This document shows, in pieces, positions 9,169-46,914 of a stretch of DNA of 60,616 nucleotides (position 1 is the first letter of the stretch; each line of letters begins with the position of its first letter). Under the pieces are notes generated by a model. That model saw only the letters and a program-made list of their open reading frames with translations. It was not told where the DNA came from and searched no databases. Source of the stretch: a virus; the IMG/VR virus record IMGVR_UViG_3300017751_000016, positions 1 to 60,616 of that record. The stretch is one strand, 5' to 3'. The position numbers and the translations under genes were made by a program.

Positions 9169-9714
9169 ATGGCTACTATTGTAACTAGAGCTGGCAAAGC
9201 ATCTGCACTCACAACGGCAGAAATGGATGCTAATTTTACAAATTTGAACGATGAGCTTGCGGCGGTAGATGTTAGTGGTAAGCTGGATGCCGCTAACGGT
9301 ACTGCTACCGGAACTTTGAACGCAGCTAATATCACTGCTACCGGAGATATTTCAGCGGACAACATCACTGCGGATCTTAAAGGTTACGGCGAAGTAATGC
9401 TGACAACTGCTTCTGCAACTGGTGCTATCAGTCTAGACTTATCTGCTGCTAATATCTTCAGACTAAATCTTACAGGAAACGCTACTGTAACTTTTACTAA
9501 TCCTCCTGCAGCGGGTTCTACTTCGGTTGCTACTATTATTGCAATTCAAGATGGATCTGGTGGTCATACAATTACGTGGACAGACGGTGCTTATGCCGGC
9601 GGTGTTGTTCCTCCTGCTACTACTGGCGCCAATGATGTTGATATTTGGACAGCATTTACATATGACCAAGGCACGTCATATGTTGTTTCTCTATCTATGA
9701 AGGATGTTAGCTAA
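9169..9714 (+). CDS. Short tail-fibre/attachment protein
   Basis: 181 aa. The N-terminus MATIVTRAGKASALTTAEMDANFTNLND is a small docking module seen again in the 34015 protein (PLTNTEVDNNFGNLN) and in many marine phage fibres. The rest is a beta-rich Thr/Ala/Asn sequence (GTLNAANITATGDISADNI). It probably sits on the tail or baseplate. It overlaps the next fibre gene by one base (TAATG), so the two are translationally coupled and may work together. Confidence 0.6.
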   Translation: MATIVTRAGKASALTTAEMDANFTNLNDELAAVDVSGKLDAANGTATGTLNAANITATGDISADNITADLKGYGEVMLTTASATGAISLDLSAANIFRLNLTGNATVTFTNPPAAGSTSVATIIAIQDGSGGHTITWTDGAYAGGVVPPATTGANDVDIWTAFTYDQGTSYVVSLSMKDVS

Positions 9715-10412
9715 TGCCAATTGGTAAGTTTGGTCTAGAAAAAACCTGGAGAGCTAGTGGTACTGGTACTACTACCGTCACTGCTTCTGGTAATTTTGAT
9801 GTGCCATTCGGAAAACATGATATCACAGTAGAGGGCAAAGGCGGCACAGGTACAGCAGCAGTTCCTTCCAATGTGGCATCATACAATGCAGGTGCGGCGG
9901 GTAATCCTGCAACATACAATGCACCAACACCAGGTAACGTAGCATCATACAATGCAGCTACGCCGGGTAACGTAGCATCATACAATGCAGACTCTGGTGG
10001 CAATATCGCTACTTACAATTCAGAGACTGCGGGTAATCCTGCAACATACAATGCACCAACACCTGGATCTGCGGCATCATACAATGCACCAACACCTGGA
10101 TCTGCGGCAACATACAATTCGCCAATTGCTGGCACTATATCAACATATAATCCTGCAACTGGGGGAAATGTTGCGACATATAATTCTTCATCAGGAGGAA
10201 ATCCTGCAACATACAATCCAGTAACATACAATGCACCAGGAACTACACCCGGTACCGTAGCATCATACAATCCAGTAATATACTCACCTGGTGGAGTTGT
10301 ACCTGGAAATGTTTCAAGTGGCGGTACCGCTGCAACATACAATGCACCATCAGGTTCACCAGGAACTGTTTCAGGTGGCGGTACCGCTGCAACATACAAT
10401 GCACCAGTATAA
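9714..10412 (+). CDS. Repeat fibre protein, N-terminal part (ends at in-frame TAA)
   Basis: 232 aa. After a unique head (about 45 residues with FDVPFGKHDITVEGKG) it consists of 10-12-residue repeats of the form G-N/S-x-A-T/S-YN-x-P-TPG. Tyr, Asn, Pro and Gly dominate. The TAA at 10410-10412 is followed, in the same frame and with no gap, by 242 more codons of identical repeats to 11138. The full gene is therefore probably 9714-11138, about 474 codons. The TAA sits where neighbouring repeats read TTT or could read TAT, so a single T-to-A change explains it. It may be a nonsense mutation, a sequence error or a readthrough site. A co-transcribed prolyl-hydroxylase-like enzyme and a glycosyltransferase follow. 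Confidence 0.7.
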   Translation: MPIGKFGLEKTWRASGTGTTTVTASGNFDVPFGKHDITVEGKGGTGTAAVPSNVASYNAGAAGNPATYNAPTPGNVASYNAATPGNVASYNADSGGNIATYNSETAGNPATYNAPTPGSAASYNAPTPGSAATYNSPIAGTISTYNPATGGNVATYNSSSGGNPATYNPVTYNAPGTTPGTVASYNPVIYSPGGVVPGNVSSGGTAATYNAPSGSPGTVSGGGTAATYNAPV

Positions 10413-11138
10413 ACAGCAGGAACGGTTGCATCATTTAATCCAGTAACATACAATGCACCAACATTTTCACCAGGAACGGTTGCATCATATAATCCAATAA
10501 TATACAATCCGGATACTTACGTTCCACCATCTTCAAATGGCGGTAATGCTGCAACATATAATGCACCATCATTTTCACCAGGAAATGTTTCTGGTGGTGG
10601 CACCGCAGTGACCTACAATACATTTACACCACCAGGGCCTGCAACATACAATGCACCAACACCTGGATCTGCGGCAACATATAATGCACCAACACCTGGA
10701 TCTGCTGCAACATACAATGCACCAACACCTGGATCTGCTGCAACATACAATGCACCAACACCGGGTACTGTAGCTTCATACAATTCAGGTGCTTCTAGTA
10801 ATCCTGCAACATACAATCCAGAAATATCAGGAAATCCTGCGTCATACAATTCGCCAATATCTGGTAACGTGGCTAGTTATAATGCAGACGTAGCAGGAAA
10901 TATAGCGAGTTATAATTCAGCGGCCGGAGGTAATGTAGCAACATATAACTCTGCTCAGCCAGCAGTCGCTGGTCAACCTGCAACCGCAATGGGAGTGACT
11001 TTACCAGGATCTAATGTTGGCGGAACAGCAGCACCATATACACCTCCACAAAAAGTATCTTACTATGATTATCCAGATTCAGATACTTATCCGGTCACTG
11101 TGACTGATGGCGGTAATGTAGTAATAAAAAGCAATTGA
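10413..11138 (+). CDS. Repeat fibre protein, C-terminal part
   Basis: In-frame continuation of 9714-10412 after the TAA. It holds the same YN-x-P repeats, including four near-perfect copies of ATYNAPTPGSA, and ends with a distinct tip: QPAVAGQPATAMGVTLPGSN then YTPPQKVSYYDYPDSDTYPVTVTDGGNVVIKSN. If made separately, the likely start is GTG 10608 (176 aa), but no good ribosome site precedes it. The unique C-terminus may be the receptor-binding or trimerising end, which would be lost without readthrough. Confidence 0.6.
   Translation, partial: TAGTVASFNPVTYNAPTFSPGTVASYNPIIYNPDTYVPPSSNGGNAATYNAPSFSPGNVSGGGTAVTYNTFTPPGPATYNAPTPGSAATYNAPTPGSAATYNAPTPGSAATYNAPTPGTVASYNSGASSNPATYNPEISGNPASYNSPISGNVASYNADVAGNIASYNSAAGGNVATYNSAQPAVAGQPATAMGVTLPGSNVGGTAAPYTPPQKVSYYDYPDSDTYPVTVTDGGNVVIKSN
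10641..10772 (+). repeat. Tandem 33-bp repeats inside fibre gene
   Basis: Four copies starting at 10641, 10674, 10707 and 10740, each beginning GCAACATA(C/T)AATGCACC and encoding ATYNAPTPG plus two residues. Near-identity at DNA level allows copy-number change by recombination. In frame and coding, so not a CRISPR. Confidence 0.85.
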
Positions 11139-11192: not shown

Positions 11193-11783
11193 ATGACCGG
11201 AATAAACAAGTATTTAGGTACTTTCGAATGCTATGCTCACATGAATCGAGCATTCACGGAAGAAGAAGTTGAAAAGATACGGGAGATAGAAGAACTACAG
11301 AGCTTTCAAAAAGGTACAATTAGCAGTAAGCTCTCAGGCACCGCCTTAAAGAAAGCAAGAGATTCAGATGTATTCTTTATGGACCATGATGAAAATACTG
11401 ATTGGTTGTATCAAAGAATGTCCTACCTAATAGCGCAAGCTAACCACGATCACTTTTTATATAATGTAGATGACTTTGGTCCCATGCAATATACTAAATA
11501 TAAAAAAGATGGTCACTACTGTTGGCATTGGGACGTATTCTTTGGTTGGCAGAAAAATGCTAGGAAAATATCAGTAGTAGTATTTTTGAATGAGCCAGAA
11601 GATTATGAAGGCGGCGAGTTTGAAATAGTTACTAATGGCAATCTAGATGAGATTAAGAAACTAAAACCTTTAAAAGGCGATGCACTGTTTTTTGCGTCTT
11701 GGATGCCACATCGAGTTTTACCGGTAACTTCTGGTGAAAGAAATACACTTGTGACTTGGGTTACTGGTCCTAGAGAATCGTAA
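11193..11783 (+). CDS. 2OG-Fe(II) oxygenase, prolyl-hydroxylase type
   Basis: 196 aa. The double-stranded beta-helix carries H112-W-D114 and H173 as iron ligands and R183, ten residues after the distal His, as the 2-oxoglutarate anchor. Surrounding motifs (YTKYKKDGHYCWHWD, KISVVVFLNEPEDYEGGEFEI, GDALFFASWMPHRVLPVTSGER) match the P4Hc/PKHD class of hydroxylases. Length is typical for phage members. It lies 54 bp after a Pro-rich repeat fibre and before a GlcNAc-transferase-like gene in the same operon, so the fibre repeats are the obvious candidate substrate (inference). Other 2OG oxygenase substrates cannot be excluded. Confidence 0.85.
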   Translation: MTGINKYLGTFECYAHMNRAFTEEEVEKIREIEELQSFQKGTISSKLSGTALKKARDSDVFFMDHDENTDWLYQRMSYLIAQANHDHFLYNVDDFGPMQYTKYKKDGHYCWHWDVFFGWQKNARKISVVVFLNEPEDYEGGEFEIVTNGNLDEIKKLKPLKGDALFFASWMPHRVLPVTSGERNTLVTWVTGPRES

Positions 11784-34510: not shown

Positions 34511-35899
34511 ATGCTTCCAATACGAATCAAAGCTTCCAGCAGTCCAGTGTCTTCTGCAAACTTCCAAGGTTTACAGCAAATGTCAGATGCTGAAATTAAT
34601 CAATACCTGTCTGCTGTAATTACACAAAAGTTTGCAGATGATACAAATGGAACAGGCACTGCCGAACTCAATGTAGACACTGCGAATGCTTTAACTGGTA
34701 CCTCTATTGGTACATGGACTAACCAAATCAGGAATGATGCGATCGGCACTCATCCAACTAGTGGCGCAACCACTAATACTACTCACTACTTCAAGCAAGT
34801 CACTGCTGCTGCATCTGAGAGCATTACTAATCGCCCTGTAGGATATGACTCTGCAATTAAAGAATTTACGGATGCGGGCCTCGATACTGACATTTTAGAT
34901 AAAGTAATTGAAGACATGGTTACTAGCACTGGCTATACGGTAGGCCAGTATGTTTTAGCTGCGTCTGCTCCTTCTGGTGGCACATGGACTTCACGGTATA
35001 CGCTCACCGATACAAATCAAGGTGGTAGCACCTCACTATATCTTTGGCAAAAAACTGCACCATCTACTGCTGCAAATGGCGATTTAGCTCCACTCAAGCT
35101 AGATGGTACTAATGTTAAAATGATGTCTGATGCTGAAATTGAACAAGTTGTTCCTAATTTTAGAAATAGAATTATTGACTCTGGTATAGGCACATATAAA
35201 ATACAATCTTCCACTCCAGGTACTGGTACTTGGACTCAAATGGGAGACACATTAAACGACACACGCCAAGTAGTATCTTCGGAAAACTACGCAGGCAACT
35301 ATGTAGGAAACTTTAGCGGAACATATGCGGGTAACTATGTAGGCGGCTATGTGGGCTCTAAAACATATTCTGGTACATATGCTGGTGGTTATGCAGGCAA
35401 CTATGTAGGAAGCTATGTGGGCGCTAAAACATATTCGGGTTCTTATACTGGATCTTTCTCTGGAACTTATGCAGGCAACTATGTAGGCACTAGTGCATAT
35501 GCTGGAGCTTATGCGGGTGATTATGCAAGAGCTGAAGGTTACACTTTGTTTTATTCAGGATATGCAGGCGGCACAAACTATTATACAGGATATTACACCG
35601 GCTTTTATACCGGATACTATACCGGTGCAAAGACTTATACTGGTAATTATACTGGCGCATACAACAGAAACTTTACTGGTAACTATGTAGGCACTTCTGC
35701 GTATTCTGGAACTTATTCTGGTACATACACTGGCTACTACACTGGTAACTATGTTGGTACTTCTACCTATTCTGGTTCATATACTGGCAACTATAGCGGA
35801 AGCTATAGCAATACTTTTTCTGGAACTTATGCTGGAGACACTGTACAAGCGTCAACAGAAGTTGTTTCTAATGTAAAACTTTGGCTGAGAACTGCGTAA
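34511..35899 (+). CDS. Tyr-Gly repeat tail fibre/adhesin
   Basis: 462 aa. The N-terminal 240 residues contain two copies of MSDAEI(N/E)Q(Y/V)L/P-type motifs (QMSDAEINQYLSAVI and MMSDAEIEQVVPNF). Residues about 260-440 are 4-residue repeats of the form Y-x-G-x (YAGNYVGNFSGTYAGNYVGG...), very rich in Tyr and Gly, spaced with KTYSGT breaks. This periodicity suggests a thin beta-solenoid or polyglycine-like shaft. It likely binds host surface sugars. The next gene is a CapK-like ligase. Confidence 0.65.
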   Translation: MLPIRIKASSSPVSSANFQGLQQMSDAEINQYLSAVITQKFADDTNGTGTAELNVDTANALTGTSIGTWTNQIRNDAIGTHPTSGATTNTTHYFKQVTAAASESITNRPVGYDSAIKEFTDAGLDTDILDKVIEDMVTSTGYTVGQYVLAASAPSGGTWTSRYTLTDTNQGGSTSLYLWQKTAPSTAANGDLAPLKLDGTNVKMMSDAEIEQVVPNFRNRIIDSGIGTYKIQSSTPGTGTWTQMGDTLNDTRQVVSSENYAGNYVGNFSGTYAGNYVGGYVGSKTYSGTYAGGYAGNYVGSYVGAKTYSGSYTGSFSGTYAGNYVGTSAYAGAYAGDYARAEGYTLFYSGYAGGTNYYTGYYTGFYTGYYTGAKTYTGNYTGAYNRNFTGNYVGTSAYSGTYSGTYTGYYTGNYVGTSTYSGSYTGNYSGSYSNTFSGTYAGDTVQASTEVVSNVKLWLRTA

Positions 35900-35914: not shown

Positions 35915-37210
35915 ATGGATTTTGAACTTGAACGGCTGAAAAGATTTCGCAAATTAATTAGATATGCGAATCAGAATTCTCCCTACTATGCTAGAATTAT
36001 TAGAGAGAATAGGATAGACATTGAATCCTCGGTTCCCGAGGATTTTCCTATTCTCACTAAAACTATGGCGATGGAAAACTTTGATGACATTGTTACAGAC
36101 AGAAAGATAACCAAAGAAAAAATTGAAGAGTTTATCACTACTTCTTCAGATCCAAGAGAGTTATACTTAAACAAATACACTGCTCTAGTCACTTCAGGTT
36201 CTTCTGGAGAAGAGGGGTACTTTGTTTCTCATGCCAAAGACACTTTTCGTGGATTAAAATCTCTCATACCTACCAAAACTTCTCTTAAATTTTCTATCAT
36301 ACTAAAGTTCATTTCTTTCTTTATCAAGAAGAAAAAAAGAATAGGGTTTGCATTTTACGGAAACACTGGTGGTCATTATGCTGGATATGATTCGGCAACT
36401 AAATGGCCTAAGATGCTATTTAATGTAAAAGGATTTGAGATTAATGATTCTGTAAATGTTGTGCTGAGTGAACTAAATGAGTTTCAACCAGAAGTCGTAT
36501 GCGGCTACACTACGATGCTTAAAATTTTAGCAGAAGAACAAGCGTCTGGGAGACTAAAAATAAAACCGATGTTTGTAATTTCTTCAGCAGAGACTGTAAC
36601 TAAAGAAGATATTGACTTTTTGTCTGAATCTTTTCCTGGCTCATACGTTATTAGTCTTTATGCTAGTAGTGAGCATGGTAACATGGGAAGGTCAAATCGT
36701 GATAAAGAAACAATGTCGCTGTATGATGACAAACTTATATTTGAATTTTTTGAAGATCATGTGCTAGTGACTAACTTATGCAACTATACCATGCCTTTAA
36801 TTAGATATAAAATGGCTGATGTGCTTACAGTTGTGAGTGAAAAACACACATATCCAACTGTAGTAAAAAATCTAGTCAGCAGGGCAGAAACTAAAGTCAA
36901 TTTTATAAATGCTACCGGAGAATTAGAAAGTTTTACTTCTTTCATCACTCGCAGATTTTATGTGAAAGGGGTGAGTAAATTTCAGATGCAAGTGAATAGT
37001 ACTACTTCTTTTATGTTTCCTATATGCCTCGAAAACCATCTCACAGAAAGTGAAAGAACAGATGCAGTATCAAAAGTAAAAGCTCGTCTCAAAGAAATAT
37101 TACACAGAAAAAATTTAGATAATGTGTCTTTCGAAATTAAAATAGTCAAAGACATACCAGTAAATAAAAAAACTAGAAAATTTCAATTGATTGTAGATGA
37201 GACGATTTAA
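35915..37210 (+). CDS. CapK/PaaK-like adenylate-forming enzyme
   Basis: 431 aa. ANL-superfamily motifs: TALVTSGSSGEEGYF (residues 90-104; phosphate-binding TSGSSG), then EVVCGYTTMLKILAEEQ, MFVISSAETVT, SLYASSEHGNMG (A5-like YxSSE), and MPLIRYKMADVL (A7-like YxxxD). This is the layout of phenylacetate-CoA ligase and capsule protein CapK. It would adenylate a carboxylate and pass it to CoA or another acceptor. In a phage late region, next to a fibre and several glycosyltransferases, it may acylate a glycan or protein (inference). It begins 15 nt after the fibre gene, without a clear ribosome site. Confidence 0.75.
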   Translation: MDFELERLKRFRKLIRYANQNSPYYARIIRENRIDIESSVPEDFPILTKTMAMENFDDIVTDRKITKEKIEEFITTSSDPRELYLNKYTALVTSGSSGEEGYFVSHAKDTFRGLKSLIPTKTSLKFSIILKFISFFIKKKKRIGFAFYGNTGGHYAGYDSATKWPKMLFNVKGFEINDSVNVVLSELNEFQPEVVCGYTTMLKILAEEQASGRLKIKPMFVISSAETVTKEDIDFLSESFPGSYVISLYASSEHGNMGRSNRDKETMSLYDDKLIFEFFEDHVLVTNLCNYTMPLIRYKMADVLTVVSEKHTYPTVVKNLVSRAETKVNFINATGELESFTSFITRRFYVKGVSKFQMQVNSTTSFMFPICLENHLTESERTDAVSKVKARLKEILHRKNLDNVSFEIKIVKDIPVNKKTRKFQLIVDETI

Positions 37211-45156: not shown

Positions 45157-45732
45157 ATGGAAAACGAAAACTTAGTCAATGCATACATTGCAAATCTTGC
45201 AAAGAGTGTAAATGATTTAACACTGGAAAACCTTCTATTGAAGGCCAAACAACAGAATGCTGCTGCTGACACAAATGCAACACAGGAGCAATTAACAAAT
45301 CAAGCTGAAGAAATACAAGAGCTAAAAGATACTGAAGAAAAATTGCGAAATGAAAGCTTTGATCTTCAAAGAAAAGCTAAAGATGACACCGACTTTATTG
45401 AAAGATTAGAAGGTGGACTTGAGCAAGCAAACGCTATCATAGCGCAGTTTGAAGAAGAAAAGAATGGGGCGCTGGCTAAAGTTGCGAAGCTTGAGAAGGA
45501 AGCTAAACAACGAGTAGTACAAGCACCTACTGATACTAAAAAATTAAAAGAAGAAAAAAATACATTATTTAATCAGAATGTTAAGTTGTTAAAAGATTTA
45601 GATTATGCCGAAAATAAAATAAAAGAGCTGAAAGTTAAGCTCAGAAATAATACCCAAGAGGAATCGGTAAATGGCAACAATAATCAAGCCAAAACGGTCG
45701 GAAACGGCGGACTCGATACCGAGTTCAGATGA
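45157..45732 (+). CDS. Coiled-coil structural protein
   Basis: 191 aa, almost wholly helical and charged: SVNDLTLENLLLKAKQQN, then long Glu/Lys/Gln heptads to residue 170 (EEIQELKDTEEKLRNESFDLQRKAK...). The C-terminal 20 residues (VNGNNNQAKTVGNGGLDTEFR) are read from DNA that also encodes, in another frame, the start of the next gene (62-nt overlap). May be a fibre chaperone or shaft. Confidence 0.6.
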   Translation: MENENLVNAYIANLAKSVNDLTLENLLLKAKQQNAAADTNATQEQLTNQAEEIQELKDTEEKLRNESFDLQRKAKDDTDFIERLEGGLEQANAIIAQFEEEKNGALAKVAKLEKEAKQRVVQAPTDTKKLKEEKNTLFNQNVKLLKDLDYAENKIKELKVKLRNNTQEESVNGNNNQAKTVGNGGLDTEFR

Positions 45733-46024
45733 TCTCGCTGTAGGCGAAATTGCATTAAACCCTACTGACAAAAAGATTTATACGAAGAAAGCAGACGGTA
45801 CAGTAGTAGACATGAATCCTGGCATCACTGCTTCGGATACAGATGTTACTAATACTATTTCAAAGTTTACATTTGCAGACACAGAAACTGGCAATATGTT
45901 TGTAGATTTTGATACGGAATCTGGTACAGCAATTGTTAAAGTAGCAATCAATGCAGACCAAGACTACGGACTCATCACTCAAGATGTTGGCGACTTCAAC
46001 GCAATTGACTACGGGAGTCTCTAA
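45671..46024 (+). CDS. Fibre-set protein, IKPKRS module
   Basis: 117 aa. MATIIKPKRSETADSIPSSDDLAVGEIALNPTDKKIYTKKADGTVVDMNPG is a docking module shared with the 46926 protein (IVIKPKRSEVTGAPTSEDLEVGEIAVNLADGTLFSKNSSGTVVQL). The rest is FADTETGNMFVDFDTESGTAIVKVAINADQDYGLI. Overlaps the coiled-coil gene by 62 nt in another frame. Confidence 0.6.
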   Translation: MATIIKPKRSETADSIPSSDDLAVGEIALNPTDKKIYTKKADGTVVDMNPGITASDTDVTNTISKFTFADTETGNMFVDFDTESGTAIVKVAINADQDYGLITQDVGDFNAIDYGSL

Positions 46025-46026
46025 TC

Positions 46027-46251
46027 ATGGCGAGTAGAATTAAGTTTAGAAGAGGTAGTACTACCGAACATGCTAGTTTTACTGGTGCAGAAGGTGAGAT
46101 TACTGTAAACACAACCAAGGATACTCTTGTAGTACATGACGGAGCCACCGCTGGCGGCTTTGAAATGATGAGATCAGACCTTGATAACATAGGAAGTACT
46201 GTAATCCCAGCGGCGAATATCACTGATATCGATTGCGGCACTTACTCATAA
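46027..46251 (+). CDS. Fibre-set protein, RRGSTTEH module
   Basis: 74 aa. IKFRRGSTTEHASFTGAEGEITVNTTKDTLVVHDGATAGGFEM is the N-terminal module of major-tropism-determinant-like phage proteins. The same 40 residues occur in the next gene, both as protein and DNA, so this is a tandem duplicate with a shorter tail. Confidence 0.6.
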   Translation: MASRIKFRRGSTTEHASFTGAEGEITVNTTKDTLVVHDGATAGGFEMMRSDLDNIGSTVIPAANITDIDCGTYS

Positions 46252-46263
46252 CGGAGACTGGAA

Positions 46264-46914
46264 ATGCCAACTATATTACAATTAAGACGAGGTACGACCA
46301 CTGAGCATGCCAGTTTCACTGGAGCAGAGGGCGAAATTACTGTCGATACTACCAAGGATACTCTAGTAGTACATGACGGCTCAACTGCTGGTGGTTTTGA
46401 ACTTGCTCTAGCAGACGGAACAAATGTATCTGTTTCTACTGAACAGGTACAAGACATTGCGGCTGGTATGATTACATCAGCATCACATACTAATATCACT
46501 GCAACATACGATGATGGAGCTGGCACTCTTGCTCTCGCCGCAGCAGCTTCTTCTTCTTATGGTGACTCTGATGTTGGAACATATCTAAGTAGCAACGGGT
46601 TTGCAACACAAAGCACTATTGTTGCTGCAATCACTGATTCTGCTCCTGCTACTCTAGATACTTTGAACGAACTTGCTGCTGCGTTAGGTGATGATGCCAA
46701 CTTTGCAACAACAACAACAAACAGTTTAGCAGCAAAAGCCCCGCTCGCAGCACCTACTTTTACTGGTACTGTCACATTGCCATCGTCTACTTCTATTGGA
46801 GATGTTTCTTCAACAGAGATTGGTTATGTCAATGGTGTTACATCTGCTATACAGACTCAAATAGATTCAAATAGAATTGACATCTATAATGCTGCTGGTA
46901 CTCTGCTAAACTAA
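46264..46914 (+). CDS. Fibre-set protein, RRGTTTEH module, longer
   Basis: 216 aa. LQLRRGTTTEHASFTGAEGEITVDTTKDTLVVHDGSTAGGFEL, then a fibre shaft with STIVAAITDSAPATLDTLNELAAALGDDANFATTTTNSLAAKAPLAAPTFTGTVTLPSSTSI, a very common tail fibre repeat. Likely a receptor-facing fibre. Confidence 0.65.
   Translation: MPTILQLRRGTTTEHASFTGAEGEITVDTTKDTLVVHDGSTAGGFELALADGTNVSVSTEQVQDIAAGMITSASHTNITATYDDGAGTLALAAAASSSYGDSDVGTYLSSNGFATQSTIVAAITDSAPATLDTLNELAAALGDDANFATTTTNSLAAKAPLAAPTFTGTVTLPSSTSIGDVSSTEIGYVNGVTSAIQTQIDSNRIDIYNAAGTLLN

What the first reader, a model, noticed from the sequence alone, without database searches (positions are those of the whole stretch)
10395..10430. Single in-frame TAA splits an otherwise intact repeat fibre
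Seen: the reading frame continues with the same repeats for 242 codons after TAA 10410-10412, with no other stop or shift. One T-to-A change in a TAT/TTT-like codon accounts for it. Options are recent inactivation, assembly error, population variant, or programmed readthrough producing a short form and a long form with a unique tip. A switch of the tip by suppression would be a simple way to vary receptor binding.
Basis: seen in the sequence. Interest (0 to 1): 0.72.

Follow-up and report, generated by a model that had tools for sequence, protein, structure and literature searches.

The report
Lone stop codon in phage fibre
One copy of a repeat-rich phage fibre-like gene carries a single premature stop that none of the 68 distinct related copies examined has, so it is most likely a recent chance mutation (or a sequencing error) and not a built-in switch.

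Summary
Frame 9714-11138 is one fibre-like gene: a conserved N-terminal cap, about 11-residue YN/PG repeats and a conserved C-terminal cap. It is cut by one TAA at 10410-10412, and 241 sense codons follow in frame up to TGA 11136-11138.

The interpretation as a readthrough switch is not supported. In IMG/VR relatives I found 46 distinct complete copies and 22 copies cut by contig ends. None has an in-frame stop. The closest relative, L006, has a tyrosine codon exactly there.

TAA is the ordinary stop of 34 of 45 window genes. It is also the least leaky bacterial stop (PMC5289835). No tRNA lies in the window, and the 125-kb relative carries only tRNA-Arg.

The downstream part was under purifying selection until recently, and no other gene checked in the window is broken. 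The predicted folded domain uses both caps, so the 232-residue product is probably non-functional.

Best reading: a private, very recent nonsense substitution. A base error in a repeat array where related assemblies break is the main rival. Reads would decide between them. Ordinary; low interest.

The parts
9714..10412 (+). upstream open frame: N-terminal cap plus first half of the repeats; 232 aa if translation ends at the TAA
10410..10412 (+). the in-frame TAA; the closest relative has a tyrosine codon here
10413..11138 (+). continuation of the same frame: rest of the repeats, C-terminal cap, TGA stop 11136-11138
9726..9845 (+). conserved N-terminal cap (KFGLEKTW...VEGKGG)
   Evidence: family-wide matches; strands predicted with confidence
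9870..10960 (+). array of about 33-bp (11-residue) YN/PG repeats, variable in number and order between relatives
   Evidence: bounds approximate
10971..11135 (+). conserved C-terminal cap (GVTLPGSNVGGT...SYYDYPD...IKSN)
   Evidence: family-wide matches; confident
9169..9714 (+). upstream neighbour, tail-fibre-like gene (phrog_9017, phrog_7760)
11193..11783 (+). downstream neighbour, 2OG-Fe(II) oxygenase, used to find syntenic relatives

Best explanation
The TAA is a private, very recent nonsense substitution, most likely at a former tyrosine codon, in a fibre-like gene of a T4-like phage; no second copy of the gene was found in the window. Shown: the stop, the intact frame on both sides, and its absence from every relative examined. 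Inferred: translation ends at residue 232, and the product lacks half of the repeats and the C-terminal cap. The two caps are the only parts confidently predicted to fold and appear to pack as one domain, so the short product is probably non-functional. The allele is either a defective or tolerated variant in the sampled population, or a loss favoured by a host change.
For: 0 interruptions in 46 complete and 22 edge-cut distinct relatives (first set). Tyrosine codon opposite the TAA in the closest relative. Downstream codons still show purifying selection (dN/dS 0.26 and 0.125) and no second lesion, so the event is recent. The rest of the contig shows no other broken sense gene against four relatives. 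No exact repeat of 12 bases or more covers bases 10409-10416, so repeat collapse alone would not create the stop. TAA is the normal stop here. Truncated tail-fibre genes occur in selected phage mutants (PMC6445280).
Against: No reads were available, so the base itself is unverified. It lies in a repeat array where contigs of close relatives end. An exact search found no second copy of the allele, although records very near the window may be left out of that search. Loss of function of the short product is inferred from prediction only. L006 begins only 9 bases before the compared codon, at a contig end.
Confidence: 0.56

Rival explanations
1. The TAA is a base-level consensus error, for example from low coverage or mixed strains in a repeat array. 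The real phage has an intact gene.
For: Every relative is intact. The site lies between repeated segments (exact 31-mer repeats end at 10406 and an 18-base repeat starts at 10417). Contigs of close relatives from two metagenomes end inside this gene. There is only one lesion, and the reading frame is kept.
Against: The bases around the stop are unique in the window, so the letters should come from reads of this spot. No other gene checked in the contig is damaged.
Confidence: 0.34
2. Programmed or suppressor-dependent readthrough makes a short and a long fibre from this gene, varying the tip.
For: The frame is intact and conserved after the stop, as readthrough would require.
Against: No relative has the stop. 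UAA is the least read-through stop in bacteria (PMC5289835) and ends 34 of 45 genes here. No tRNA in the window, and only tRNA-Arg(TCT) in the relatives. No strong structure 3' of the stop. The C-terminus is the family's conserved cap, not an optional tip. A change this recent would leave the frame intact anyway.
Confidence: 0.05
3. The codon was changed by a diversity-generating retroelement or a similar targeted diversification system.
For: The affected gene is a variable fibre-like gene, and the changed base is an adenine.
Against: No reverse transcriptase (PF00078) in the window or in relatives G003, G004, G005. The relatives differ mainly in repeat number and order, which is not the pattern of adenine mutagenesis.
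Confidence: 0.01

Closest known systems
Premature stops in tail-fibre and other genes of selected phage host-range mutants (Kayvirus 812K1/420, PMC6445280)
   Same: A lineage-specific premature stop in a phage gene. [quoted passage not shown]
   Different: There the tail-fibre stop came from a 77-bp deletion in an isolated, selected mutant. Here it is a substitution in a metagenomic contig, with no phenotype known.
Programmed readthrough in phages, such as the leaky stop that yields the RNA phage Q-beta A1 protein (from general knowledge)
   Same: A stop followed by a long conserved in-frame extension.
   Different: Q-beta uses a leaky UGA kept in its relatives (general knowledge). Here it is UAA and is absent from all relatives.
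Phages with a reassigned stop codon, such as genetic code 15 (PMC9523058, abstract)
   Same: An in-frame stop codon inside a phage gene.
   Different: There it is TAG read as glutamine across the genome. Here it is one TAA, while TAA ends 34 of 45 genes.

Membership tests
Programmed stop-codon readthrough gene | the stop is conserved at the same place in relatives | tested here: not met
   0 of 46 complete and 22 edge-cut distinct copies are interrupted
Programmed stop-codon readthrough gene | coding constraint continues after the stop | tested here: met
   dN/dS 0.26 against L006 and 0.125 against L004 for the last 91 codons; a very recent mutation gives the same result
Programmed stop-codon readthrough gene | leaky codon or stimulating RNA element | tested here: not met
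   UAA, least read-through stop; downstream fold z = -1.70
Programmed stop-codon readthrough gene | extended protein is made | not testable with these tools
   needs virion proteomics or a reporter
Stop codon reassignment or phage-borne suppressor tRNA | in-frame TAA in several genes, TAA not used as the normal stop | tested here: not met
   TAA ends 34 of 45 genes; no other sense gene interrupted
Stop codon reassignment or phage-borne suppressor tRNA | tRNA reading UAA encoded by the phage | tested here: inconclusive
   none in the window; relatives carry only tRNA-Arg(TCT); the window is a fragment of its genome
Recent nonsense mutation (pseudogene at an early stage) | stop private to one lineage, with intact relatives | tested here: met
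Recent nonsense mutation (pseudogene at an early stage) | allele present in the sequenced population | not testable with these tools
   no reads held; exact search found no second copy
Diversity-generating retroelement target | reverse transcriptase encoded nearby | tested here: not met
   PF00078 absent in the window and in G003, G004, G005; these records are linear and may be fragments

The most novel reading that the evidence does not exclude
In its host, which might carry an ochre suppressor, this phage reads the UAA at low level and so makes a short and a long fibre, as a newly arisen lineage-specific switch.
Probability: 0.05. Interest if true: 0.6.

Novelty: new member of a known kind. 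Interest (0 to 1): 0.13.

Why it matters
As a switch it would have been a simple way to vary receptor binding. As found, it is a single broken allele, and it shows that a lone in-frame stop in a metagenomic phage fibre gene should be checked against relatives before a mechanism is proposed. The by-product is a family of capped repeat proteins in uncultivated T4-like phages, for which searches of named phage records gave no convincing relative.

Tried and rejected
Nucleotide and protein searches of named phages with the fibre, its caps or two family members found no relative; one further family member gave only weak, repeat-type matches. An exact pattern over the stop found no second copy of the allele in IMG/VR. 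Reinitiation after the stop is unlikely: the first in-frame start codons I found are GTG 10608, 195 bases on, and ATG 10989, 576 bases on. Stops flagged in other genes were mostly frames antisense to real genes; the sense ones checked were upstream start differences or two adjacent genes. The fibre is not a stop hotspot by composition (3.9% of single-base changes give a stop, against 4.3% in other genes). A fold search gave no convincing match: best Foldseek E 7.9, and VIA-align Z about 5 against Bxb1 tail tip and cyanophage Pam3 fibre. A profile search of solved structures found nothing.

Full report
What is there. The window is a linear 60.6-kb virus record. It carries T4-type genes: gp32-like ssDNA-binding protein, DNA end protector, head closure, baseplate and large terminase. 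Among named phages the baseplate tail-tube-cap protein is nearest to Pelagibacter phage HTVC008M, at about 34% identity over half its length. Between a tail-fibre-like gene (9169-9714) and a 2OG-Fe(II) oxygenase gene (11193-11783) lies the frame 9714-11138. It is open except for TAA 10410-10412. The 241 codons after TAA contain no stop, whereas the other five frames of the same stretch contain 6 to 17.

One gene, not two. Both ends are conserved through a family of related genes: an N-terminal cap (KFGLEKTW...VEGKGG) and a C-terminal cap (GVTLPGSNVGGT...SYYDYPD..YPV.V..GG...IK). Between them lie variable repeats of about 11 residues. Complete family members run from 266 to 882 residues, counted from the preceding stop to the end of the C-cap match. 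The caps are the parts predicted with most confidence. In the short member L118 the ordered residues are the two caps, about 40% of the chain, with pTM 0.43. A structural alignment placed 81-83 residues spanning 16-268 on one region of a single chain, though at a weak Z of about 5. I infer that N- and C-caps form one domain with the repeats looped out between them. A product ending at residue 232 would then lack half of that domain. That it is a fibre is itself an inference, from its neighbours and its repeats; Pfam and PHROGs give no family for the window's own copy.

The stop is private. Using the fibre, its downstream neighbour and a family profile I collected relatives from IMG/VR. Across 46 distinct complete copies and 22 copies cut by contig ends there is no interruption. 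The nearest relative appears to be one phage split over two contigs of one metagenome (G004, G005). Much of the shared DNA is about 93% identical to the window, and the relative has a tyrosine codon exactly opposite the TAA. A conserved readthrough signal is therefore excluded for the family. A newly acquired one is not formally excluded.

The gene was functional until recently. The last 91 codons show dN/dS of 0.26 against L006 and 0.125 against L004, compared with 0.21 (L005) and 0.075 (L004) for the N-terminal part. There is no second stop and no frameshift. The fibre is not a stop hotspot by composition: 3.9% of its single-base changes give a stop, against 4.3% in other genes. No second copy of either cap was found elsewhere in the window.

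Readthrough is unlikely. TAA is the regular stop here (34 of 45 genes). UAA is reported as the least read-through stop in bacteria (PMC5289835). Neither ARAGORN nor Rfam finds a tRNA in the window. The 125-kb relative has only tRNA-Arg(TCT). The RNA 3' of the stop is not unusually structured. There is no reverse transcriptase to suggest a diversity-generating retroelement.

Real allele or error? This cannot be settled without reads. For an error: the stop lies in a repeat array, and contigs of close relatives from two metagenomes end inside it. Against: bases 10409-10416 lie in no exact repeat of 12 bases or more elsewhere in the window, so repeat collapse alone would not create the stop, and no other gene checked in the contig is damaged. 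I put a real recent nonsense allele at 0.56, an error at 0.34, readthrough at 0.05 and targeted diversification at 0.01. Premature stops in fibre and other genes of selected phage mutants are known (PMC6445280), so the finding is ordinary.

Noticed in passing
35915-37210 (+): An AMP-forming acyl-CoA-ligase-like gene (F390 synthetase-related, NCBIfam TIGR02304 E 4e-22 but below its cut-off) is present in the window and missing at the same junction in relatives G003, G005 and G007: a recent gain or repeated loss.
   Followed up: partly
34511-35899 (+): A second, unrelated repeat protein with YxGxYxG-type repeats (22-residue, 66-bp units), and no Pfam or PHROGs match.
   Followed up: no
9714-11138 and L118, L123, L155, L161, L065, L105: A family of capped repeat proteins next to a 2OG oxygenase in many uncultivated T4-like phages. 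The caps are conserved while the repeat arrays differ strongly in length and motif. A few members match phrog_22415, of unknown function.
   Followed up: partly
L058, L059, L061, L066: Some relatives carry two C-cap-bearing fibre genes in tandem.
   Followed up: no
45671-46914 (+): Two adjacent small genes (46027-46251 and 46264-46914) begin with the same motif (RRG-TTEHASFTGAEGEITV...TKDTLVVHDG), which looks like a duplicated fibre head module.
   Followed up: no
just left of window base 1: Relatives G003 and G004 have a tRNA-Arg(TCT) gene about 1.4 kb before the region that matches the window's start, so the window's phage probably has it just outside the contig.
   Followed up: no
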